Virus record (IMG/VR): IMGVR_UViG_3300047480_000208
Coordinates: 1-34,009 of that record
Length of the DNA stretch: 34,009 bases
Strand: one strand, 5' to 3'
From: a virus
Numbering within the stretch: the first letter of the stretch is position 1; each line of letters begins with the position of its first letter. This document shows, piece after piece, positions 24,093-34,009 of the stretch. Made by a program: the position numbers and the translations under genes. Below the pieces are notes generated by a model. The model had not been told where the DNA came from, searched no databases, and saw only the letters and a program-made list of their open reading frames with translations.

Positions 24093-25814
24093 TTAGTTAG
24101 ATATCCTTATCCAGTCTGGGGAGTAAGTATTTATATCTGATTCTGTCAGGGTAATGTCTGAATCTTCTACAACTAATGAATTATTGCCCATATACAATTC
24201 GTAATTATTTTGAGGTATCGTGTCGCTATTGGCATAAATGGTTATATTCTTATAAACATTATCATCTAAAAGGCCCGTCCAGGCACCAGACTGATACTTA
24301 ACATTAAACCAAATGTCTCCAGTAATTGCTGAATTTAGTTTAATAAATATATGATTTGAGTCATTAATATTTAGGTAGGAAGATATGCTTGAAGCCCCTG
24401 TAACGTCCTGCCCATTTATATGTAGCTCAGATATACCAGACTTAGAGATCGTGCCCCCAGAGGCCCATGAAAGGCTGTATTCGGTACCCTCAGTTATGTT
24501 GTGGAACAGATATCCACTAGAAAGAGTTTTTGGCGTAAAAATAAATTCTAAATCTAATATATCGTCAAGTGTATTTAATTTAAACCCAGATGACTTGCAG
24601 GATATGCCGTCTTTTTTAGACCTAGCAAGAACTGGGTACTCAAAGCTAGAAAACTCTATATCACCAGAAGTTTGGCTATCTTCAATATAGCCAGATCCGT
24701 TATGTGCAAATAATTTCTTTTCAGGATAAAACAATAAACTTAAATAGTGTAACTCTGGAGTATAAATTGTTGAATCACTTGACTGAAATTGTACTTTTAC
24801 ATAAATTATTTTCTTATTGTTAATATTTGGAATAGCCGATCCATTTTCACACTCAGTCCAGTTAGTTTCGTCAGTAGATACAAATACGGATATGCCTTCT
24901 CCACCCAGCCACTCTATTTTTGAAGACACATATGACTTTCTTATAGATAAGGATACGGCTTCTATAAACTCAGCTGAGACACTTCCATTTTTTAAATAAA
25001 TTGTGTCTTTAATTTCATCATAAGATAGATTTTCATTTACAAAATATTCCCATTTTTTAGATAGCGGGAATATAAATTTGTCTGCTTCTGGCTGATGCTT
25101 TTCTGTAGACTTAAATAAAAATCCAGAATTTAAAGATGCTATTTGTGCTGGCGTAATTGAAAAAGATTTTGCATAATGATTCTTTATCTGAGTATCGCTT
25201 AAAGAATATCTATATACAGACGGAGCATCAATTATAAAACTTTGTCCAGTCTCACATGGGCCAGCTGATAAAAGTAACGAGCTATTTGTAAATTTAAATG
25301 AATCTATTTTTTTATACTTAACCAACATCCCATCTATATAAAGAGATATAGATTGCTTTTTATAAACACCCACAATGTATATTGTTTTATTTAAATTTGG
25401 TAATGTATAGTATAAGCTTTCAGAGCCTACAGAAAACACAATATTGCCATTGTCCCAATATATTCCAATGTTGTTTGTGCTTCCTAGAATAGGAGTCAAT
25501 GAATTTATATTTTTAGGAAACACCCAAGCTTCCAAAGAGAAATCATTATCGGATGTCTTTTCTGTTCCAAAAGATTCTGATGAGCTCTGTCCATAATAAT
25601 CTTTTTGTATAGGAAATTCAATATAAGAACTGTCTGTAATTGTTGTACCAGAGACGCCCTGCGGAACTAGAGGAAATATATTTTCATTTATAAAATTTAT
25701 ATACTGTGCGTTGTTGCCACAACCTGAATAATCGTATGCAACATCGCCCGCATTCTCATCTAGCTTCCAGAATCCTAGCGGGCTGTCCTTAATAATTGAC
25801 GTGTAATAGGACAT
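24093..25814 (-). CDS. LamG/concanavalin-like surface protein, 573 aa
   Basis: Residues ~1-215 match LamG-type lectin domains: SPLGFWKLDENAGDVAYDYS at the start, FSLEAWVFPKN near 92, and LYIDGMLVKY near 155. A second sandwich (~260-360) contains WLGGEGISVFVSTDETNW. A third (~405-560) resembles another LamG-like module (LDLEFIFTPKTLSSGYLF, YSLSWASGG). This is typical of phage proteins that bind host glycans or decorate virions. Here it lies before the portal rather than in the tail cluster, so a head fibre or a transplanted receptor-binding protein is possible. It starts at an ATG six bases after TGATATAAT with no ribosome binding site, and a moderate -35 (CTGGCA) lies 17 bases farther up. Confidence 0.7.
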   Translation of the reverse strand: MSYYTSIIKDSPLGFWKLDENAGDVAYDYSGCGNNAQYINFINENIFPLVPQGVSGTTITDSSYIEFPIQKDYYGQSSSESFGTEKTSDNDFSLEAWVFPKNINSLTPILGSTNNIGIYWDNGNIVFSVGSESLYYTLPNLNKTIYIVGVYKKQSISLYIDGMLVKYKKIDSFKFTNSSLLLSAGPCETGQSFIIDAPSVYRYSLSDTQIKNHYAKSFSITPAQIASLNSGFLFKSTEKHQPEADKFIFPLSKKWEYFVNENLSYDEIKDTIYLKNGSVSAEFIEAVSLSIRKSYVSSKIEWLGGEGISVFVSTDETNWTECENGSAIPNINNKKIIYVKVQFQSSDSTIYTPELHYLSLLFYPEKKLFAHNGSGYIEDSQTSGDIEFSSFEYPVLARSKKDGISCKSSGFKLNTLDDILDLEFIFTPKTLSSGYLFHNITEGTEYSLSWASGGTISKSGISELHINGQDVTGASSISSYLNINDSNHIFIKLNSAITGDIWFNVKYQSGAWTGLLDDNVYKNITIYANSDTIPQNNYELYMGNNSLVVEDSDITLTESDINTYSPDWIRISN

Positions 25815-26021: not shown

Positions 26022-26492
26022 TTATTGATTTAAAATGTATTTGACTTCTAATTCTGATAAGAACCTATCTGGGTTAAACCGCCAATTATCTTTTGAAAAA
26101 GATGTAGCTATTTTAATACAGGCACCCTCATAAACTTCTTCAGGCAACAACGGCTTTAGCTGCTTTAAAACTTCTGTAATATCATAATAATTTTGTCTAA
26201 GAAAAGTTGGGTCTCCCGCCTGATTTCTTTTGAATACTTTTTGGTTAACTCTTCCAGAAGGTTCATATAGCGTAACAGTTAAATACTGTTTGGCAAATCC
26301 CCAGTCCTGGTACATATTATATGCTTCCGACGCATCTATTGCATTATCGTAAAATATAATAGTTCTAACTGGAGACTCCCCGTCCCTAGAGATAGTAAGC
26401 ATGTAAGAGTTAGCATTTTTGCGTTCTACATCTTGCAAATAGTTTGCAACTACATCCCCATGCTCTTGTTTAAGTTGACCAGCTGCTGTCAT
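26022..26492 (-). CDS. Unknown protein, 156 aa
   Basis: Starts as ATGA overlapping the stop of the methyltransferase gene, so it is translated with it. It is a mixed alpha/beta protein: an N-terminal helix (LKQEHGDVVANYLQDVERK), a strand pair (YMLTISRDGESPVRTIIFYD), DASEAYNMYQDWGFAKQYLTV and a C-terminal helical part. No catalytic motif seen. Last gene of the oxygenase operon before the leaderless 55-residue gene. Its coupling to the methyltransferase suggests shared function, but I cannot assign it. Confidence 0.55.
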   Translation of the reverse strand: MTAAGQLKQEHGDVVANYLQDVERKNANSYMLTISRDGESPVRTIIFYDNAIDASEAYNMYQDWGFAKQYLTVTLYEPSGRVNQKVFKRNQAGDPTFLRQNYYDITEVLKQLKPLLPEEVYEGACIKIATSFSKDNWRFNPDRFLSELEVKYILNQ

Positions 26493-27091
26493 GGTGACTC
26501 AAATCTTGAGTACCACTTATACTCTTGATAAGGGATAACAGTAGAGTCTACCCACCAGTCTTCATGACCAATTTTACAAACCAGCGAGTATCCTAAGCTA
26601 TCTAAAATTTCTCTCTGTGCATCTCTAAGGGCTGCGTTTTTATAATGAATTATAAACTCGTGTTCAAATGAAATTACTGTAAATCGATAGTGATTTAGAG
26701 GCAAAGCAATTAAACCAAGTAGCGGCTGCCCTATTGGATCACGTGGCCTACCGCCTCTATCCATTGGACTTTCAATATCGATTTGTAGATAGTCTATTTG
26801 TTTTGGAAAATTATTTTCCTCAAAATATTTAAGGTAATTAAATTTTGTTGCATCCTCCACAAGGCATGGGTTAGATCTAACTGAGTTATATTTTTCTGCA
26901 TGCTTTTCGTTTAAATCAAATCCTATACCCTTCCAGCCATAATCCTTTTCCATCCTATATGTAGTATTTCCCTGTATTGGATCTGCAGATCCCATTTCTA
27001 CATAGTATCCATCCTTTTTATACTTCAATATGTCTAACGCAAATGCGTCTGAAGAATGGATAAAATTTCTTTTATCAATAGGTTGTTCCAT
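26489..27091 (-). CDS. FkbM-like SAM-dependent methyltransferase, 200 aa
   Basis: The FkbM-type pattern is clear in the N-terminal half: motif I YVEMGSADP at 30-38, then TTYRMEKDYGWKGIGFDLN at ~43-61, and LQIDIESP at 102-109. The usual FkbM order is G-x-x-x-G-x-x, then a Glu/Asp at the end of the next strand, then (V/I)-D-x-E in the third. FkbM enzymes make O-methyl groups on sugars or small molecules. It starts eight bases inside the end of the oxygenase gene upstream, with AGAGGA before the ATG, so it belongs to the oxygenase operon. A tailoring role beside hydroxylases is likely; the substrate is unknown. Confidence 0.75.
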   Translation of the reverse strand: MEQPIDKRNFIHSSDAFALDILKYKKDGYYVEMGSADPIQGNTTYRMEKDYGWKGIGFDLNEKHAEKYNSVRSNPCLVEDATKFNYLKYFEENNFPKQIDYLQIDIESPMDRGGRPRDPIGQPLLGLIALPLNHYRFTVISFEHEFIIHYKNAALRDAQREILDSLGYSLVCKIGHEDWWVDSTVIPYQEYKWYSRFESP

Positions 27092-27680
27092 CTGATTCCT
27101 CTATTCCATTAAACAATTCCTTATTTAGAATTGTAGGTTTATCTTTAGAGCCCTTAACAAACATTGTTGAAACATATCTAAAGTTATTGCTCTTTACTGG
27201 TAGTGTACCATGAAGAATATTCCCTCCATGTATAATCATAGATCTTGCCTTAGGCTTATGGACTAAATTAAGTTCTGGATATTCAATCTCTCCGCCTTCG
27301 TAATCGTCATTATAATAAATAACTAATCCATATCTAATGTGATAATCTTCTTCGTATTTCCAATAATCACGATGTAACCCCAAGCTGTCATCTTTTGTGT
27401 ACCTAGCAATGTTAATACCAGTAATTTCTAAAACGCTATCGAATATACTAAGACACCTTTTGTATATTTCATTATAAACAGAATTGTCTAGAAGTCTTGA
27501 CATTGGATCTAAAACTTTTCCATACCAGAAATTAAATTCATACTCATCTTTATTAATTGGATCCCAAAGTGTTCCCTCTAAACTGTCTATCTGATTTAAT
27601 ATTTTTGATTGCTCTTCAATCGTTATAAAATTTTCTATTTCATAAATATCTGGTAAAATTTTATTTATTTTCATATTCAT
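27075..27680 (-). CDS. 2-oxoglutarate/Fe(II) oxygenase, P4H type (island member 7), 201 aa
   Basis: Iron ligands are visible as H103-x-D105 (GLHRDYW) and H157 (ILHGTL); R168 (NFRYVST) fits the 2-oxoglutarate contact. The shared signature NDDYEGGEIEY lies at 124-134. At about 201 residues it is the shortest member and lacks the long N-terminal helical extension seen in the others. It starts as ATGA inside the stop of the preceding oxygenase. The family hydroxylates protein side chains or small molecules using O2 and 2-oxoglutarate; the substrate here is unknown. Confidence 0.85.
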   Translation of the reverse strand: MNMKINKILPDIYEIENFITIEEQSKILNQIDSLEGTLWDPINKDEYEFNFWYGKVLDPMSRLLDNSVYNEIYKRCLSIFDSVLEITGINIARYTKDDSLGLHRDYWKYEEDYHIRYGLVIYYNDDYEGGEIEYPELNLVHKPKARSMIIHGGNILHGTLPVKSNNFRYVSTMFVKGSKDKPTILNKELFNGIEESDGTTY

Positions 27681-28474
27681 CCAGTCACATCATCATGTGT
27701 TTTGCTGACAATGTCATCCCATATGTCTTTATGTCTTTGGTCAAGAAAAGACAAGAAGTCTCCTTCGCTCATAGAATTTTTATCATTATAATATTCTTCC
27801 GTTCCATCCTGCCAATATTTCCAATAACTTCTAATTATATACTTTGTGCCATTCTCCACAATTTTAACACCATGATAAACTGGATGTTTTGACGGAAACA
27901 CTATTGCGTCACCCTTTGATGGCTTATAGGATATTCGGTGCAAAACTTTCGAATAATCTTCTTCAAATACCTTAAAGCATATTTCTCCGCCGTCGTAGTC
28001 ATCGTTTAGATAAAAAACACAAGTGGTTTGAAACTTCATCCCTGGCTCATAATCTCTTTCGAGCTGATAGTCTGTGTGATAATTCATTGCCTGAGTTCCA
28101 GAAACTCCTGACATTTGATTGTAATAGCATAAATCTGGACCGCCAAATTCCCAATTATCTAACTGTATATTCTGTGCCTCAGAATATTTTTTTGTTACAT
28201 AATAAAATGCATCGGTAAACTGTTGAAGTGATTTATTCTTAGAAGACTCTTTTGTTACATTATCATCCCATTCGGCCATTGATGGAAAAGACTTAGAATT
28301 CATTCCTCCTAATGGAAGAAATATTTTTTCTCCAAAGGAATACCAACCAAGCCACTTACTAGAAAATTCTTCACCCCTAAGATAATTTATTAAATCATCA
28401 CTTTGAGTCAATATGTTTTTAAAGACCCAAATTTTAGGGTGAAGAACTTCTAATTCAACATCATCAAATGACAA
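27677..28474 (-). CDS. 2-oxoglutarate/Fe(II) oxygenase, P4H type (island member 6), 265 aa
   Basis: TTG start at 28474, directly next to the upstream stop, with AAGGA nine bases before. Ligands: H133-x-D135 (NYHTDYQ) and H201 (VYHGVKIV); K211 (TKYIIRSYW) fits the 2-oxoglutarate contact. The signature is YLNDDYDGGEICF (155-167), with a D in place of the usual E. A conserved MNYHTDYQ motif precedes the core. An N-terminal helical domain of ~120 residues, rich in aromatic residues (WLGWYSFGEK), probably shapes the substrate site and differs between the paralogs. Confidence 0.88.
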   Translation of the reverse strand: MSFDDVELEVLHPKIWVFKNILTQSDDLINYLRGEEFSSKWLGWYSFGEKIFLPLGGMNSKSFPSMAEWDDNVTKESSKNKSLQQFTDAFYYVTKKYSEAQNIQLDNWEFGGPDLCYYNQMSGVSGTQAMNYHTDYQLERDYEPGMKFQTTCVFYLNDDYDGGEICFKVFEEDYSKVLHRISYKPSKGDAIVFPSKHPVYHGVKIVENGTKYIIRSYWKYWQDGTEEYYNDKNSMSEGDFLSFLDQRHKDIWDDIVSKTHDDVTG

Positions 28475-29239
28475 CTACATCATTCCTTGCATCTGCTCGT
28501 GATATGCCTTAATATACTCTTCAGTTGGGCCACCAGGACCACCGACTACATATCCATCAACAAATATAAAACCAGGAGTAATATACTTTTCTCCTTCTTT
28601 CATAATATGAACCTGATGCTTATATGGATCAGTAGATGGGAATATTAGTGCGCTACCAGCCTTTGGCTTTGCAGTAAACGTAACCATATCCTTTGTTCTT
28701 GGATCTAAGGCATCATCTGGTGGCCTTAAGTGACCATTTACTTCTAATCTTAAATCTTCTGGTCTAATAACAAAGGAGATTTCTCCACCCTCGTAATCAT
28801 CATTCCAGTAAATAATAATAGACCATTCTAAGCTATTGTCTCCAGCCTGTCTATCGAAGTGTGCTCCCATAGCGCATCCTGGAATGTACTTAGATATACC
28901 TACAAAAGGGGACACGTTTGGTTCACCTTTCAATCCTCTATCTACGATAAAGGCTTCTGCAATATTTCTAATTGCATTTCTAATTGTAGATATAATGAGG
29001 TCTACATCTTTTCTAACTTCTGGGTCTAGATTTTCCACTTCAGAAAGATTAAAATCCTTTTTCTTTCCAAAGATGTTTCCATCTCTACTGCTTGAGTTCC
29101 AATTATTCCATTTAGGAATTACTTTATGAACTCTTTCGTCAGAATCCAGCTTATTGATCAGATCAATAATTTCTTGAGGATTCTCAATCACATCTGAATA
29201 CATGTAAACATTTTCATGTAATCTTTCTTCTAGTTGCAT
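28475..29239 (-). CDS. 2-oxoglutarate/Fe(II) oxygenase, P4H type (island member 5), 254 aa
   Basis: Ligands: H127-x-D129 (GAHFDRQ) and H208 (YKHQVHIM); K218 (EKYITPGF) for 2-oxoglutarate. Signature YWNDDYEGGEISF at 144-156. It carries an insertion of ~25 residues after the first strands (EVNGHLRPPDDALDPRTKD, ~166-184) that is not in the closest paralogs. The start overlaps the previous stop as TAATG, with GAGGAAAG before it. The insertion could form a substrate loop. Confidence 0.88.
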   Translation of the reverse strand: MQLEERLHENVYMYSDVIENPQEIIDLINKLDSDERVHKVIPKWNNWNSSSRDGNIFGKKKDFNLSEVENLDPEVRKDVDLIISTIRNAIRNIAEAFIVDRGLKGEPNVSPFVGISKYIPGCAMGAHFDRQAGDNSLEWSIIIYWNDDYEGGEISFVIRPEDLRLEVNGHLRPPDDALDPRTKDMVTFTAKPKAGSALIFPSTDPYKHQVHIMKEGEKYITPGFIFVDGYVVGGPGGPTEEYIKAYHEQMQGMM

Positions 29240-29982
29240 TATTCGCTTTCCTCCATTTTATATTTATTTCCATCTGGATCTAACTTGTATCCTTCTTTTA
29301 GTGCATCTTGCCAACCAGCTTTTATAACCTCTTGCTCTTCTCTAATTCTTTTCATTTCTGCATCCCAAGCATCAATTGTTTCTTGAGGATAAGCACTCTG
29401 ATCTCTATCATCCCAGAATGATCCAAGCGTGTATCTAATTCCAGAAGTAATCATTGTTACCTCATGAGTGTTGTCAAACCCGCCAGCAAATGCTGCAAGT
29501 GCCCCTGTTTTTGGATGAATTAGCTGATCCTGTTTATTAAACTTTAGAAGACCACCTTCGAATTCATCATTTAAGTAAAGGAATGCGGCATATCTACTTC
29601 TTTCAAATGGTCCAGTATTTCCTTCTAGATCAGTATTATCTGAGTGTTCTTTTGCAAAAGCACCTGGCTCCCATTTTTGAGCATGAAAACCAATTTTGTG
29701 AATATCAGAAGTAGGCTTGCCATGAACCTCTGCGACAGCACTAATTATTTTATTCTGTAGAATAGAAAAAAAGTCAGAAGGCAAACCAAATTGTTCTAAC
29801 TCCTCATCACCATCTTGAGGAAGTACGGATGAATATGACTCATAGAACGTAATTGGTGTCCATGAAAGTTTTTCATTTTTAACTTGAGCCTCCATAACAT
29901 CAATAATTGCTTGAGACTCTTCTTTGGTCAAAAAGTTTTCGTACAACAAGATATCTTTAGTTAATCTGATATAGTTAGACAT
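29239..29982 (-). CDS. 2-oxoglutarate/Fe(II) oxygenase, P4H type (island member 4), 247 aa
   Basis: Ligands: H113-x-D115 (KEHSDN) and H173 (NTHEVTMI); R183 (GIRYTLGSFWDD) for 2-oxoglutarate. The usual acidic signature is altered to YLNDEFEGGLLKF (136-148), the most divergent of the seven. Its GIRYTLGSFWDDRD ending is like that of prolyl-4-hydroxylase-type enzymes. The C-terminal ~45 residues form a charged helix. GAGGAG lies five bases before the ATG and overlaps the upstream stop region, so translation is coupled. Confidence 0.87.
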   Translation of the reverse strand: MSNYIRLTKDILLYENFLTKEESQAIIDVMEAQVKNEKLSWTPITFYESYSSVLPQDGDEELEQFGLPSDFFSILQNKIISAVAEVHGKPTSDIHKIGFHAQKWEPGAFAKEHSDNTDLEGNTGPFERSRYAAFLYLNDEFEGGLLKFNKQDQLIHPKTGALAAFAGGFDNTHEVTMITSGIRYTLGSFWDDRDQSAYPQETIDAWDAEMKRIREEQEVIKAGWQDALKEGYKLDPDGNKYKMEESE

Positions 29983-29984
29983 AA

Positions 29985-30743
29985 TTACTCCTCATAAACG
30001 CTTTCATAAAGCTTCTTGCCACGCATTTCTGGATCTAGCAAGGTTCTATAGTATTCTTTGTTGGCTTCTGGTTTATTTGCGCCAGTATGCTCTAATATTG
30101 TCCAGAAGAATGGCACTGTATATCTTATATTTCCTTTTATTTCAGTAACTCCATGAATATAATTCATATCACCTGGGAAGAAATATGCAGCTCCTCTTTT
30201 AGGTTTAATGCTAACTCCTTGTAGAGGCCAATAAATTTCTCCACCCTCATAGTCATCATTTAAGTAAAACAAACTAGCTATGTCGTAATAAGGGAAATCA
30301 TTAGGTAGTCCTGCATCAGGACCATCATGAAGCTCTTTGTCAGCATGAGGCTTCTGGATATGTCCAGGTAGCCATCTTACAATTGTTTGACCAGTTGGTT
30401 GAACTCTAACATTAAAAAAGTTTTCTATTACTGGTTGAAGTCTTTGAAACAAACCCTCGATAACTGGACCAATTTTTGGATCATTTTTGTCTAATGAGGG
30501 TCTGGTTGCTACTCTATCTTTCCAATAATTAGCATCATATATAGTAGTTCCATTTTCATTAACGTGACTTTCCGTATAATCCCAAATGGTTATATTTTTA
30601 GCAGCATTTTCTAAAAAGTCTATTTCTTCTTCGGTCATAAAGTTTTCTAGCTCAACAATATTGTCTTTACTCGTCCCAAAAAAACCAGAAGGAGTTATAG
30701 ATTTTGTTACCTGATCTAAATGATTTACATTCATCTTTTCCAT
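29985..30743 (-). CDS. 2-oxoglutarate/Fe(II) oxygenase, P4H type (island member 3), 252 aa
   Basis: Ligands: H133-x-D135 (KPHADKE) and H197 (YIHGVTEI); R207 (NIRYTVPFFW) for 2-oxoglutarate. Signature YLNDDYEGGEIYW at 160-172. An N-terminal helical extension of ~100 residues (NFMTEEEIDFLENAAKNI) is typical of P4H-like proteins. The start has an unusual context: TGATATAAT lies exactly six bases before the ATG and there is no usable ribosome binding site at proper distance (GAGGAG is 15 bases upstream), so an internal leaderless promoter may restart transcription inside the operon. Confidence 0.88.
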   Translation of the reverse strand: MEKMNVNHLDQVTKSITPSGFFGTSKDNIVELENFMTEEEIDFLENAAKNITIWDYTESHVNENGTTIYDANYWKDRVATRPSLDKNDPKIGPVIEGLFQRLQPVIENFFNVRVQPTGQTIVRWLPGHIQKPHADKELHDGPDAGLPNDFPYYDIASLFYLNDDYEGGEIYWPLQGVSIKPKRGAAYFFPGDMNYIHGVTEIKGNIRYTVPFFWTILEHTGANKPEANKEYYRTLLDPEMRGKKLYESVYEE

Positions 30744-30749
30744 ATTAAT

Positions 30750-30758
30750 ATTATATCA
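30750..30758 (-). promoter_or_regulatory. Internal leaderless promoter in the oxygenase operon
   Basis: TGATATAAT, hexamer at 30755-30750, begins inside the stop codon of the DUF6065-like gene and lies six bases (ATTAAT) before the ATG at 30743. The -35 (TTTCTA) is poor. Confidence 0.5.
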
Positions 30759-31472
30759 CTCCTCTATAGGTGTAGAAAGATCATTAATTTTTAGCCTTAT
30801 GGCCTTTAATTCGTGATCTCCTAACTTTGTGCCGTCGTACTCTACACCGTCTCTGTAAAAATTAGTAAATTTGCCTTGCATAGTTATTTCTTTCCAAACT
30901 TTATTTCTTTCTTCTTTTTGCTGCCAAGACATCTCTGGCCACACTTTATCCTGAATTTCCAATTCAACCTCGTTATATTTTCCTAAAGATATAGGTATAA
31001 AAGTTGCTATAGGTGTTCCAGCTGGAATAGTAATTTTTGTATTAGGTCTTGTTATCTTCCATGCTACTGGTATGGCCTCTTGAAAAAATGAAGTTGAGAT
31101 TATAGTTGTAAATGGCATTGCTCCGTCTATAAAATAATTAGGAGGAACTATCTGAAGCATAGAGGTATTTTTATCTGTCTCAAAGAATATTCCCGTATAG
31201 AAGCTAATGGTTCCATTTGATCTCTGAGTGCTACAGAATCCTCCTGGATCTTTAAGAACTTTAACGTGCTCTGCGCTTGAATTAGATATGCCATCCCAAA
31301 TAAACTCTACATCATCTAACAAAGATATAGACCAACCTATTGTATTTGCTAAACTGACTGGAAAACACTTATATGCATGAGCATTATCGGTTGCGTCCAT
31401 CCAATCTCTTTTTACCCTAGTCTGTTCTATCTTGACTCTATGACCAGCATGTTTATAGGCTTTAACCTGCAC
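30756..31472 (-). CDS. DUF6065-like protein, 238 aa
   Basis: By recalled pattern this matches the DUF6065 family of unknown function: RDWMDATDNAHAYKCFPVSL (~22-41), ANTIGWSISLLDDVEFIWDG (~42-61), a central GIFFETD and MLQIVPPNY, and TIPAGTPIATFIPI (~148-161). I favour the GTG at 31472 because GGGAGAG lies about eight bases before it and it fits the family's usual N-terminus; ATGs at 31499 and 31526 lie farther inside the upstream oxygenase gene. It sits between two oxygenases. The related gene at 32138-32821 shares the IPAGTP motif. Function unknown. Confidence 0.75.
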   Translation of the reverse strand: MQVKAYKHAGHRVKIEQTRVKRDWMDATDNAHAYKCFPVSLANTIGWSISLLDDVEFIWDGISNSSAEHVKVLKDPGGFCSTQRSNGTISFYTGIFFETDKNTSMLQIVPPNYFIDGAMPFTTIISTSFFQEAIPVAWKITRPNTKITIPAGTPIATFIPISLGKYNEVELEIQDKVWPEMSWQQKEERNKVWKEITMQGKFTNFYRDGVEYDGTKLGDHELKAIRLKINDLSTPIEE

Positions 31473-32136
31473 TTGGCTCACTCTCCCATTTAGGATCATA
31501 CATTTCTTGAGTGTGAAACTTTCCACTATAGTCCAGCATTGTTACAATAGAATACTTGGTTCCAGAAGTAACTGGTTTTGCTTGATGAGGATACATGTAG
31601 TTAGATGGGAATATATAAAGATCTCCAGCCTTTGGTTTTATGTTAAGATTCTGTAATCTAAAATATAGCTCTCCCCCTTCATAATCATCGTTAACATATG
31701 CAACTAGTGATACTGTACAATTATATGAATAGCCGTGGTCATGGTGTTCCATGAAGTGCTGTCCTGGTCCATATTTAATAAAATTAAATGCTTCCCAATA
31801 CTTTAAATCCATTAAGTTATAATCTTTACGATAATCGTTGACAGCTGCAGACTGAACATCAAAAACATCCTGCCACAAAGCCTGGAGTTTTGAAGATTCT
31901 TCGCTCTTGTCATATTGAATATCAGTTTTCTTAAACTTAAAATCTACACAATCTCTATAATCTGGCATAAGCTGTTGGTATCCAACATAGGCTGGTTGCC
32001 ATGCATACTTAGCTCCAGAATTAACTGGACTTAAAATATTTTCTAATCGATTAATTACATCTAGCTCTTCTTTAATAACATCCCTATAAACAACAATTCC
32101 GTTGCCTAGAGACTCTTTACCTGACCAAGTTTGCAT
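31462..32136 (-). CDS. 2-oxoglutarate/Fe(II) oxygenase, P4H type (island member 2), 224 aa
   Basis: I choose the ATG at 32136 (MQTWSGK) because it lies one base after the upstream stop, with GGAGAG twelve bases before; the upstream ATG at 32187 lies within the previous gene and has no ribosome binding site. Ligands: H131-x-D133 (EHHDHGYSY) and H184 (YPHQA); K194 (GTKYSIVTM) for 2-oxoglutarate. Signature YVNDDYEGGELYF at 147-159. It is the closest relative of member 1: both share EAFNF(V/I)KY, a (A/H)DHG-x-(F/S)Y-x-CTVS core and KPKAGD. It overlaps the DUF6065-like gene by 11 bases. Confidence 0.88.
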   Translation of the reverse strand: MQTWSGKESLGNGIVVYRDVIKEELDVINRLENILSPVNSGAKYAWQPAYVGYQQLMPDYRDCVDFKFKKTDIQYDKSEESSKLQALWQDVFDVQSAAVNDYRKDYNLMDLKYWEAFNFIKYGPGQHFMEHHDHGYSYNCTVSLVAYVNDDYEGGELYFRLQNLNIKPKAGDLYIFPSNYMYPHQAKPVTSGTKYSIVTMLDYSGKFHTQEMYDPKWESEPSAG

Positions 32137-32137
32137 A

Positions 32138-32821
32138 TTACTTGTACTCTCTCCTATTCCATACCTTGCTCTTATACACTCCGCCATCTGGTTGACGGTA
32201 AAATTTCATATTTTCAGTCATCTTGTCATGCATATCTTTTTGAGACAAAAACTTTATTTCATGTTGCCAATCTTCTCTTTTAAAAGGAAGAATTTGAAGA
32301 TAAGGTGTTCCTGCTGGGATAGTTCCCTCCCAACCTTCTACTAAGAAGAACGGGAAAGTACCAGATAGATGAACACTATCATTGTCTACAACTCCAGTAG
32401 TATTTAGGAATGGTAAATCAAATCTATTCATCGGAGTCATATACAAACAACTATAACCTTCTGGGACCTCTAGTGCCCAATCAGGATACCAAGCAAAATG
32501 TTCTTTGTAATAACCCTTTGGATGCTCAAACTGGGGCATTGGAGTTCTAGTTGTACAGAATCCCATATTTCTTTTATCGTCTATCCTTACATTGATTTTA
32601 CCATTTGTATCTTTATAAAATGTTATATCACATGGTGTTTTAAAAACATAGCCAGTAATAAAGGCATCCATAACTGCTGGGCAAGCCTTCCAAGTTGGGA
32701 TGTACCCGTAGTCATCTTTTGTACCCTCTTTTGGAAATGGGCAAACTTCTTTTGTTGCCTTATAATATTCACCATTTGGCATTTTGGCAAATCGATCAGC
32801 ATCTTTATACCATTTAGGCAT
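32138..32821 (-). CDS. DUF6065-related protein, 227 aa
   Basis: Related to the gene at 30756-31472 rather than to the oxygenases: the middle has EGYSCLYMTPMNRFD (like MLQIVPPNY in the other) and ends in TIPAGTPYLQILPF (~167-180, like TIPAGTPIATFIPI). An N-terminal region with KACPAVMDAFITGYVFKTPCDITFYKD is its own. No catalytic motif is recognised. The ATG at 32821 has no ribosome binding site. It follows oxygenase member 1 and precedes member 2, so oxygenase plus this family appears as a repeated pair. Function unknown. Confidence 0.65.
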   Translation of the reverse strand: MPKWYKDADRFAKMPNGEYYKATKEVCPFPKEGTKDDYGYIPTWKACPAVMDAFITGYVFKTPCDITFYKDTNGKINVRIDDKRNMGFCTTRTPMPQFEHPKGYYKEHFAWYPDWALEVPEGYSCLYMTPMNRFDLPFLNTTGVVDNDSVHLSGTFPFFLVEGWEGTIPAGTPYLQILPFKREDWQHEIKFLSQKDMHDKMTENMKFYRQPDGGVYKSKVWNRREYK

Positions 32822-32897
32822 TACTGAGTGCGTTGTCCCTGGTACAGACGGACTAAACTTAGTTAGCCATGGCCTGAATGCAGAAAAAATTATTTTA

Positions 32898-33605
32898 TTA
32901 ATATCCGCCTTCGCTTCCTGGACTCTTATGATACCTATCGTTGTAATCCATCATAATTACAACAGCATATTTTGTTCCTGATCTTATATTTAAAGAGGCA
33001 TGTTCATAAACAAAATTTGAAGGAAATAACATAATATCTCCAGCTTTTGGTTTTATTGTTAAATCATGTCTAGGAAATTCAAGCTCTCCGCCCTCGTAAT
33101 CGTCATTTAAATAAACAACAGCTGAAACCGTACATGTATAGAATGGCCCATGATCTGCATGAATTTTAAAATATTCTCCTGGTAAATATTTAACAAAATT
33201 AAAAGCTTCTTTATACTTAATATTAAAATGCCATAAGCTTTCATAATGCCTCAAAGTTACATCTAATCTATCATTAACCATGTCGTGAGCTTTAGCAAGA
33301 GCCTCATTCTCTGGTATATATGTTCCTAACGCTTCTTTTTTATACTTTAAATCATAGCAGTTTCTAGCATGAGTTGTTCTTTCTTTGCCGTTAACGCTAG
33401 CTTCATTCCACTGTATTTTTGGAATACCAAGGGAGATCTCATTTTCAATAAGATTTATAATTGTATTACAGTCTTCTTTATTTATAGCATTTCGATACAA
33501 ATTGATTCCATAATCTAAATTAATAACTTCTACGTCATCTTGTATCTTTTGGGTATCTAATCTTTTTTTTGTTTTTTCTATTCTTGGTAAATCATACCAT
33601 TCCAT
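32898..33605 (-). CDS. 2-oxoglutarate/Fe(II) oxygenase, P4H type (island member 1), 235 aa
   Basis: The ATG at 33605 (MEWYDLP) is chosen because AGGAG sits five bases before it; a longer frame begins at 33695 but would include the upstream terminator. Ligands: H149-x-D151 (KIHADHG) and H202 (YEHASL); K212 (GTKYAVVIMM) for 2-oxoglutarate. Signature YLNDDYEGGELEF at 165-177. It is the promoter-proximal gene of the island. P4H-type enzymes hydroxylate proline or similar residues in proteins; the adjacent Pro/Phe repeat gene is a possible substrate, though not proven. Confidence 0.9.
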   Translation of the reverse strand: MEWYDLPRIEKTKKRLDTQKIQDDVEVINLDYGINLYRNAINKEDCNTIINLIENEISLGIPKIQWNEASVNGKERTTHARNCYDLKYKKEALGTYIPENEALAKAHDMVNDRLDVTLRHYESLWHFNIKYKEAFNFVKYLPGEYFKIHADHGPFYTCTVSAVVYLNDDYEGGELEFPRHDLTIKPKAGDIMLFPSNFVYEHASLNIRSGTKYAVVIMMDYNDRYHKSPGSEGGY

Positions 33606-33658: not shown

Positions 33659-33665
33659 TAGCAAA

Positions 33666-33692
33666 AGAGGGGGCATTTTGAGTGCCCCCTCT
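33666..33692 (-). terminator. Rho-independent terminator after the Pro/Phe repeat gene
   Basis: GAGGGGGCA pairs perfectly with TGCCCCCTC (33667-33675 and 33683-33691, plus one A-T pair outside) around a seven-base loop, followed by TTTT on the minus strand. It lies 20 bases after the repeat-gene stop. A weaker U-tract lies on the other side. Confidence 0.88.
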
Positions 33693-33711
33693 CATATTAA
33701 ACTATATTTTA

Positions 33712-34009
33712 CTAGTATCCAAAGCCTGGGAAGAATGGTCCTCCGCCAAAGCCTGGGAAGAACGGTGGGAAGAATGGTCCAAAGCCTGGGAAGAATGGTC
33801 CAAAGCTTGGGAAGAATGGTCCCTTAAAGTATGGGAAGTAGGGGCCAAAGAACGGTGGGAAGAACGGTGGGAAGAACGGGAAGAACGGTGGGAAGAACGG
33901 GAAGAACGGTGGGAAGAACGGCGGGAAGAACGGTGGGAAGAACGGTGGGAAGAATGGGAAGAACGGTGGGAAGAATGGGAAGAACGGTGGGAAGAATGGT
34001 GGGAAGAAC
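33712..34009 (-). CDS. Pro/Phe-rich repeat protein, C-terminal part (cut by window edge)
   Basis: The minus-strand frame ends with TAG at 33712-33714 and stays open to the edge, 98 codons visible. The N-ward part is a chain of PPFF and PFF units (12- and 9-base DNA units); the C-terminus changes to blocks such as GPFFPGFG and ends GFGY. The other strand has an open EERW-type frame, but the terminator just past the minus-strand stop and the uniform gene direction favour this reading. Such a chain should be disordered or form a polyproline-like, aromatic-rich fibre; secreted, virion-surface or aggregated roles are all possible. The N-terminus lies outside the window, so a signal peptide cannot be checked. 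No family recognised. Confidence 0.7.
   Translation of the reverse strand, partial: FFPPFFPPFFPFFPPFFPFFPPFFPPFFPPFFPPFFPFFPPFFPFFPPFFPPFFGPYFPYFKGPFFPSFGPFFPGFGPFFPPFFPGFGGGPFFPGFGY
33715..34009. repeat. Tandem 9/12-base repeats within the Pro/Phe gene
   Basis: On the plus strand, units of gaagaacgg and gaagaacggtgg alternate irregularly, with some cgg to tgg changes. The array is densest between 33849 and 34009 and decays toward 33715, where GFG-encoding blocks interrupt it. Confidence 0.9.

What the first reader, a model, noticed from the sequence alone, without database searches (positions are those of the whole stretch)
27075..33605. Seven different prolyl-hydroxylase-type oxygenases in one phage operon
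Seven same-strand genes each retain the H-x-D...H iron triad and a K or R 2-oxoglutarate contact, and share an ND(D/E)(Y/F)(E/D)GG signature, while their N-terminal regions differ. None looks broken. Phages commonly have one or two such genes; seven intact, diverged paralogs imply selected division of labour, for instance different substrates or serial hydroxylation. Together with a FkbM-like methyltransferase this looks like a modification island not explained by virion assembly.
Basis: partly seen in the sequence, partly recalled or inferred. Interest (0 to 1): 0.88.

Follow-up and report, generated by a model that had tools for sequence, protein, structure and literature searches.

The report
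Phage hydroxylase array beside FFPP-repeat fibre gene
Seven intact prolyl-hydroxylase-like enzymes in this uncultured phage sit directly behind a gene made of Phe-Phe-Pro-Pro repeats, and the two travel together across many related phages, which suggests that the phage hydroxylates a proline-rich fibre much as animals hydroxylate collagen.

Summary
In detail: seven same-strand, intact, diverged PF13640 oxygenases lie at 27075-33605. All keep HxD...H and K/R, and all are under strong purifying selection (dN/dS 0.01-0.09 against a relative). They are not a loose collection. Across uncultured relatives, four positional orthologue groups keep their order, and the array has a fixed plan: repeat gene - oxygenases with an interleaved DUF6065-like pair - LamG gene. 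In relatives its complete form is an FN3-[FFPP]n protein, and in the relative checked it sits 33 nt behind a tail-fibre gene (Mtd_N). In an oxygenase-blind sample of portal-matched contigs, 18 of 19 with two or more oxygenases carry this repeat gene, against 0 of 14 without. Closest solved relatives are prolyl hydroxylases (PBCV-1 vCPH, P4H, PHD2, P3H1). Best explanation (about 0.7): the array hydroxylates the FFPP fibre, so the 'not virion assembly' reading is probably wrong. Activity and site specificity are inferred, not shown. I found no description of this system; published work calls viral P4H use 'cryptic'.

The parts
33712..34008 (-). C-terminal 98 codons (5' end cut by window edge) of the [FF(P/PP)]n repeat protein, ending ...GGGPFFPGFGY*; proposed substrate
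   Evidence: complete relatives L118, L120, L104 are FN3-[FFPP]n proteins
33665..33693 (-). terminator-like hairpin between the repeat gene and oxygenase 1 (11-bp stem)
   Evidence: such sites are not enriched over shuffles in the region, so weak on its own
32898..33605 (-). oxygenase o1 (core positional group)
   Evidence: PF13640; AF2 model pLDDT 86; best folds prolyl hydroxylases
32138..32821 (-). phrog_7084 / DUF6065-like protein (S); homology suggests a true start near 32902
   Evidence: phrog_7084 E 5e-31; AF2 pLDDT 89; dUTPase-like beta-clip fold, Z 10.5
31462..32187 (-). oxygenase o2 (core group, sister of o1)
   Evidence: PF13640 E 2.7e-15; tree
30756..31526 (-). DUF6065 protein (D)
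   Evidence: PF19541 E 5.7e-35, over cut-off
29985..30743 (-). oxygenase o3 (core group)
   Evidence: profile hits P3H1 and P4H in PDB
29239..29982 (-). oxygenase o4 (core group)
   Evidence: profile hits P3H1 and P4H
28475..29239 (-). oxygenase o5 (accessory)
   Evidence: only PDB profile hit is a prolyl 4-hydroxylase (5c5t) at E 0.0098
27677..28474 (-). oxygenase o6 (accessory; listed start TTG)
   Evidence: profile hits P3H1 and P4H
27075..27680 (-). oxygenase o7 (accessory)
   Evidence: profile hits bacterial P4H at E 6e-9
26489..27091 (-). possible FkbM-like methyltransferase, downstream in several islands
   Evidence: sub-threshold Methyltransf_21; position conserved
26022..26492 (-). 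conserved uncharacterised protein downstream of the array
   Evidence: no family match; found in several islands
24093..25814 (-). LamG/concanavalin-like protein; downstream border of the island, next to the portal gene cluster
   Evidence: PF13385 E 2.7e-10

Best explanation
The seven enzymes are Fe(II)/2-oxoglutarate-dependent prolyl-hydroxylase-type oxygenases. They most likely hydroxylate, mainly on proline, the [FF(P/PP)]n repeat region of the FN3-containing protein encoded just upstream, a tail-fibre-cluster product. Four core enzymes (o1-o4) plus a variable set of accessory ones probably divide the work by repeat context, site or order, as collagen P4H, P3H and LH do on one chain. Hydroxylation would stiffen the aromatic-proline chain, make it soluble or make it adhesive, before or during virion assembly. 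Shown here: intact catalytic residues, selection, old orthologue groups, fixed gene plan, and co-occurrence with the repeat gene. Inferred: that the repeats are the substrate, that proline is the residue hydroxylated, that the protein is in the virion, and the division of labour. The DUF6065-like pair is a near-constant partner of unknown role.
For: Intact triad and K/R in all seven, and in 772 of 783 unique full-length relatives; dN/dS 0.010-0.086. Positional orthologue groups o1-o4 conserved across phages. 177 islands, redundant contigs included: 170 with DUF6065-like genes, 159 with the repeat gene, usual order F-o-S-o-D-o-o. Oxygenase-blind sample fetched by portal: the first count gave 15/19 against 0/14; reading the whole records found the repeat in three of the four exceptions, giving 18/19 against 0/14 (Fisher p 1.8e-8). 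Eight sister records of 22-78 kb with no oxygenase have no FFPP or FFxPP repeat; eight multi-oxygenase records all have one. Oxygenase-blind FFPP pattern scan: 57 of 70 repeat genes with at least 3 kb of room have a same-strand oxygenase within 3 kb downstream. 127 of 148 repeat ORFs with an N-terminal part have an FN3-like domain. In L120 the repeat gene starts 33 nt after a 1067-aa Mtd_N tail-fibre gene. o1 model: top matches PBCV-1 vCPH, PHD2, algal P4H with (Ser-Pro)5 (Foldseek E 3e-11; VIA Z up to 18.3 over 197 residues). Profiles of o1, o3, o4, o5, o6 and o7 find prolyl hydroxylases in the PDB (o5 weak).
Against: No direct evidence of hydroxylation, substrate binding or presence in the virion. 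Gene neighbourhood can reflect shared inheritance: on the portal tree only 2 independent contrasts rest on starred branches (5 on all branches), nearly all pairings in the expected direction and none opposed, but too few for significance. A few repeat genes sit on fragment records with no oxygenase. Phages with 2OG genes but no FFPP exist (S-SCSM2R, HTVC027P), so the family as a whole is not tied to this substrate. Seven enzymes for one repeat is more than any analogue known to me needs, so some may act elsewhere. The window holds only the repeat gene's C-terminus.
Confidence: 0.7

Rival explanations
1. The oxygenases act mainly on something else (host proteins such as EF-Tu, other virion proteins, surface sugars, nucleotides or the 2OG pool); the repeat gene is a neighbour only because both belong to the late fibre region.
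For: Bacterial P4Hs of this fold bind or modify EF-Tu (4iw3 and 5v7y among the matches); other phages carry such enzymes without FFPP genes, among DNA-replication genes; 2OG-level and DNA-repair roles have been proposed (PMC3037559). Late-region position also fits modification of other virion proteins.
Against: Near-perfect presence/absence match with the repeat gene and its constant place 5' of the array; nearest solved relatives include enzymes acting on proline-rich or collagen chains.
Confidence: 0.17
2. The site behind the repeat gene is a recombination-prone cargo region in which oxygenases accumulate; the FFPP repeat is only a landing place.
For: Accessory members (o5 onward) vary in number and kind; some islands hold up to 11 oxygenases.
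Against: Core groups o1-o4 and the DUF6065-like pair keep order across divergent phages; phages lacking the array also lack the repeat gene.
Confidence: 0.09
3. Redundant duplicates kept by neutral amplification, with little division of labour.
For: Paralogues share one family; in some contigs the last gene has lost catalytic residues (L046, L059, L060, L074, L079).
Against: dN/dS 0.010-0.086 for all seven; paralogues only 21-29% identical except o1/o2 and old: the core groups predate the phages compared.
Confidence: 0.03

Closest known systems
PBCV-1 viral prolyl 4-hydroxylase (vCPH, PDB 5c5t) with its proline-rich viral proteins
   Same: Virus-coded prolyl hydroxylase with viral proteins as likely substrates (Eriksson 1999 as cited in PMC9301287); top Foldseek match of o1.
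   Different: Eukaryotic algal virus; here a tailed phage, typically 5-7 paralogues in one array, and an FFPP repeat directly adjacent.
Animal collagen modification (C-P4H, P3H1, LH3)
   Same: Several 2OG oxygenases acting on one repetitive proline-rich chain; P3H1, LH3 and C-P4H-II turn up in profile searches.
   Different: Repeat is FF(P/PP), not Gly-X-Y; no triple helix shown; no homology of substrates.
Cyanophage 2OG-Fe(II) oxygenases (e.g. S-SCSM1 with 24)
   Same: Many diverged 2OG genes in one phage genome (PMC9602691).
   Different: In the cyanophage stretch viewed (S-SCSM2R) they lie among replication genes; no FFPP repeat in that genome; proposed roles metabolic.
Stanwilliamsviridae Streptomyces phages (Jay2Jay)
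   Same: Homologous portal, protease and capsid cluster.
   Different: The Jay2Jay region viewed upstream of the portal has no oxygenase island or repeat gene.

Membership tests
2OG-Fe(II) oxygenase superfamily (PF13640) | Profile match over the curated cut-off | tested here: met
   all seven
2OG-Fe(II) oxygenase superfamily (PF13640) | HxD/E...H iron triad and a K/R 2OG contact | tested here: met
   all seven
2OG-Fe(II) oxygenase superfamily (PF13640) | Double-stranded beta-helix fold | tested here: met
   o1 only: pLDDT 86, VIA Z 15.7-18.3 to prolyl hydroxylases; others not modelled
Prolyl hydroxylases | Closest solved relatives by sequence profile are prolyl hydroxylases | tested here: met
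   weak for o5; o2 not searched
Prolyl hydroxylases | Hydroxylation of peptidyl proline | not testable with these tools
   needs enzyme assay or mass spectrometry
Viral collagen / collagen prolyl hydroxylase system | Gly-X-Y repeat substrate | tested here: not met
   substrate candidate is [FF(P/PP)]n
Phage tail fibre / adhesin | Gene in tail-fibre cluster with fibre-type domains | tested here: met
   in relatives: FN3 domains; behind an Mtd_N fibre gene in L120; the window itself holds only the C-terminus
Phage tail fibre / adhesin | Protein present in the virion | not testable with these tools
   needs virion proteomics
DUF6065 (PF19541) | Profile match over cut-off | tested here: met
   30756-31526: 121 bits; 32138-32821 has no Pfam hit and is linked by an iterated profile
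dUTPase (for the S protein) | dUTPase fold and catalytic motifs | tested here: inconclusive
   fold similar, Z 10.5 over 118 residues; catalytic motifs not examined
FkbM methyltransferase (26489-27091) | Profile match over cut-off | tested here: not met
   14.5 bits against 22.7

The most novel reading that the evidence does not exclude
A previously undescribed class of protein fibre: tailed phages of uncultured hosts make a hydroxyproline-rich [FF(P/PP)]n fibre matured by a dedicated multi-enzyme hydroxylase array with DUF6065-like partners, and in some phages finished by a C-terminal Hint-type self-processing domain; a prokaryotic-virus counterpart of collagen maturation that arose independently.
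Probability: 0.5. Interest if true: 0.92.

Novelty: new variant of a known kind. Interest (0 to 1): 0.82.

Why it matters
[quoted passage not shown] A fixed substrate-enzyme gene pair turns this into a directly testable hypothesis. If true it shows large-scale proline hydroxylation in phage structural proteins, a collagen-like maturation logic outside eukaryotes and their large viruses, and a new genetically encoded aromatic-proline polymer of interest for materials.

Tried and rejected
A first genome pattern for the repeats was mis-specified and found nothing even in positive controls; replaced by two patterns with positive controls. The four apparent exceptions to the association were checked in whole records: L040 and L059 carry FFPP and L054 carries FFxPP outside what was first detected; L074's record shows none and ends close upstream of the array. 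A search for relatives among isolated phages found none with the module: o4 and DUF6065 give no hit, o3 only remote hits. The FFPP pattern in cellular genomes gave mostly single, short matches; 3 of 28 had an oxygenase nearby. Literature searches for DUF6065 and FFPPFF found nothing relevant. Chance or decay of the paralogues rejected by dN/dS. The FkbM call was not confirmed. The first two tries at the active-site/tree script failed or stopped part-way; the tree came. The dN/dS script stopped after the first relative, so only L092 is compared in full. PHROG labels such as 'DNA endonuclease V' and 'ferrochelatase' for these proteins are taken as annotation carry-over.
Full report
WHAT IS THERE. 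The window is a linear virus record of 34,009 bases, a fragment. Its protease matches Streptomyces phages at about 50% identity, and Jay2Jay of the Stanwilliamsviridae shows the same portal-protease-capsid order. On the minus strand, reading 5' to 3': the end of an [FF(P/PP)]n repeat gene (33712-34008, cut by the window), a terminator-like hairpin, oxygenase o1, protein S, o2, protein D (DUF6065), o3, o4, o5, o6, o7, a possible methyltransferase, an uncharacterised protein and a LamG-type protein, then the portal cluster.

CHECK OF THE SEVEN. All pass the Pfam cut-off, all show H-D-H-K/R at the catalytic columns and the NDDYEGG-type motif. Among 783 unique full-length relatives, 772 keep the four positions; six of the 11 exceptions lie in contigs L046, L059, L060, L065, L074 and L079, where the gene affected is the last of the array. 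dN/dS against L092 is 0.010-0.086.

ORTHOLOGY AND SYNTENY. A tree of 170 domains from 25 islands (FastTree, long branches flagged, so deep joins are unsure) places o1, o2, o3 and o4 in groups made mostly of the same-position genes of other phages; o1 and o2 are sisters. o5-o7 belong to more variable groups. Of 177 islands with at least three oxygenases (redundant contigs included) 170 hold DUF6065-like genes and 159 the repeat gene, typically F-o-S-o-D-o-o... or F-o-o-D-S-o-o.... Thirty-seven complete, non-redundant islands hold 2-8 oxygenases, 34 of them 5-7.

THE NEIGHBOUR THAT EXPLAINS IT. Translation around the relatives showed an FFPP repeat gene upstream in nearly all of them. Complete examples have one to several FN3-like domains, then up to well over 100 residues of FFP/FFPP units or FFxPPx units, then a short tail or a Hint-like domain. 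The repeat uses several Pro and Phe codons, which suggests that the protein, not a DNA repeat, is conserved. In L120 the gene follows a tail-fibre gene with an Mtd_N domain by 33 nt.

TEST OF THE ASSOCIATION. The oxygenase-fetched loci are biased, so three other samples were used. (i) Loci fetched by the portal protein with at least 9 kb upstream: 15 of 19 with two or more oxygenases had the repeat gene, 0 of 14 of the rest; the whole records raised this to 18 of 19 (Fisher p 1.8e-8). The samples share ancestry: on the portal tree only two independent contrasts are well supported and they agree, for example L043 (array and repeat) beside L037 and L020 (neither). (ii) Whole records: eight records without oxygenases have no repeat, eight with arrays do; two records with a single oxygenase (L062, L068) have none. 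Of 13 records checked, each behind a locus without an oxygenase nearby, seven carry PF13640 genes over the cut-off elsewhere, one a sub-threshold hit, five none. A cyanophage and a pelagiphage with 2OG oxygenases have no such repeat.

ENZYME TYPE. The o1 model (pLDDT 86) matches PBCV-1 vCPH, PHD2, algal P4H and Pseudomonas P4H. Profiles of o1, o3, o4, o6 and o7 find bacterial P4H, P3H1 or LH3; o5 only weakly. Sequence and fold cannot settle the residue hydroxylated; LH3 and PiuC appear too.

PARTNERS. S and D are homologous. The S model (pLDDT 89) has a dUTPase-like beta-clip core (Foldseek E 1.5e-3; VIA Z 10.5 over 118 residues). S relatives occur in haloarchaeal tailed viruses near fibre or adhesin genes. 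Their role is unknown.

HOW IT MOST LIKELY WORKS. The repeat protein is made late with the other fibre proteins; the core enzymes hydroxylate prolines of FFP and FFPP units (inferred), and accessory enzymes add further sites or contexts (inferred). The result would be a fibre with altered stiffness, solubility or adhesion (inferred). Multiplicity is easiest to understand if enzymes differ in the proline they accept or act in sequence, as on collagen; no data here assign sites to enzymes.

PRIOR KNOWLEDGE. No paper found describes FFPP phage proteins or DUF6065 (the library lacks most subscription journals). Multiple 2OG genes in phages are known and viral prolyl hydroxylation is known from PBCV-1. 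The system is therefore filed as a new variant of a known kind, with the categorically newer reading kept open.

Noticed in passing
L129:2541-3956, L142:2603-3907, L153:3020-4381 and others: 41 of 204 unique repeat ORFs match a Hint/intein-like C-terminal domain (C...HN), suggesting self-cleavage or attachment of the fibre.
   Followed up: partly
window 30756-31526 and 32138-32821: A homologous pair of DUF6065-like proteins is a near-constant part of the island; predicted dUTPase-like beta-clip fold, no known role.
   Followed up: partly
L046:6924-7508, L059:6862-7437, L060:7213-7767, L074:6894-7448, L079:7168-7770: The last oxygenase of the array has lost catalytic residues in these contigs: possible pseudoenzymes.
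   Followed up: no
L175:3020-4066, also L170, L168, L185, L192: Some phages carry two repeat genes; L175 has two in tandem and 11 oxygenases.
   Followed up: no
L338:6001-6657 (HF2), L339:6001-6639 (HRTV-17): Relatives of the S protein sit near fibre/adhesin genes in haloarchaeal tailed viruses.
   Followed up: partly
L333, L322, L316: FFPP repeat plus oxygenase on contigs binned to bacterial genomes (Chitinophagaceae, Gammaproteobacteria, Verrucomicrobiales); may be phage contigs.
   Followed up: no
L012, L026, L043, L047, L048, L054 record, L077, L078: A second repeat type, FFxPPx with x often G/S/A, replaces FFPP in these phages.
   Followed up: partly
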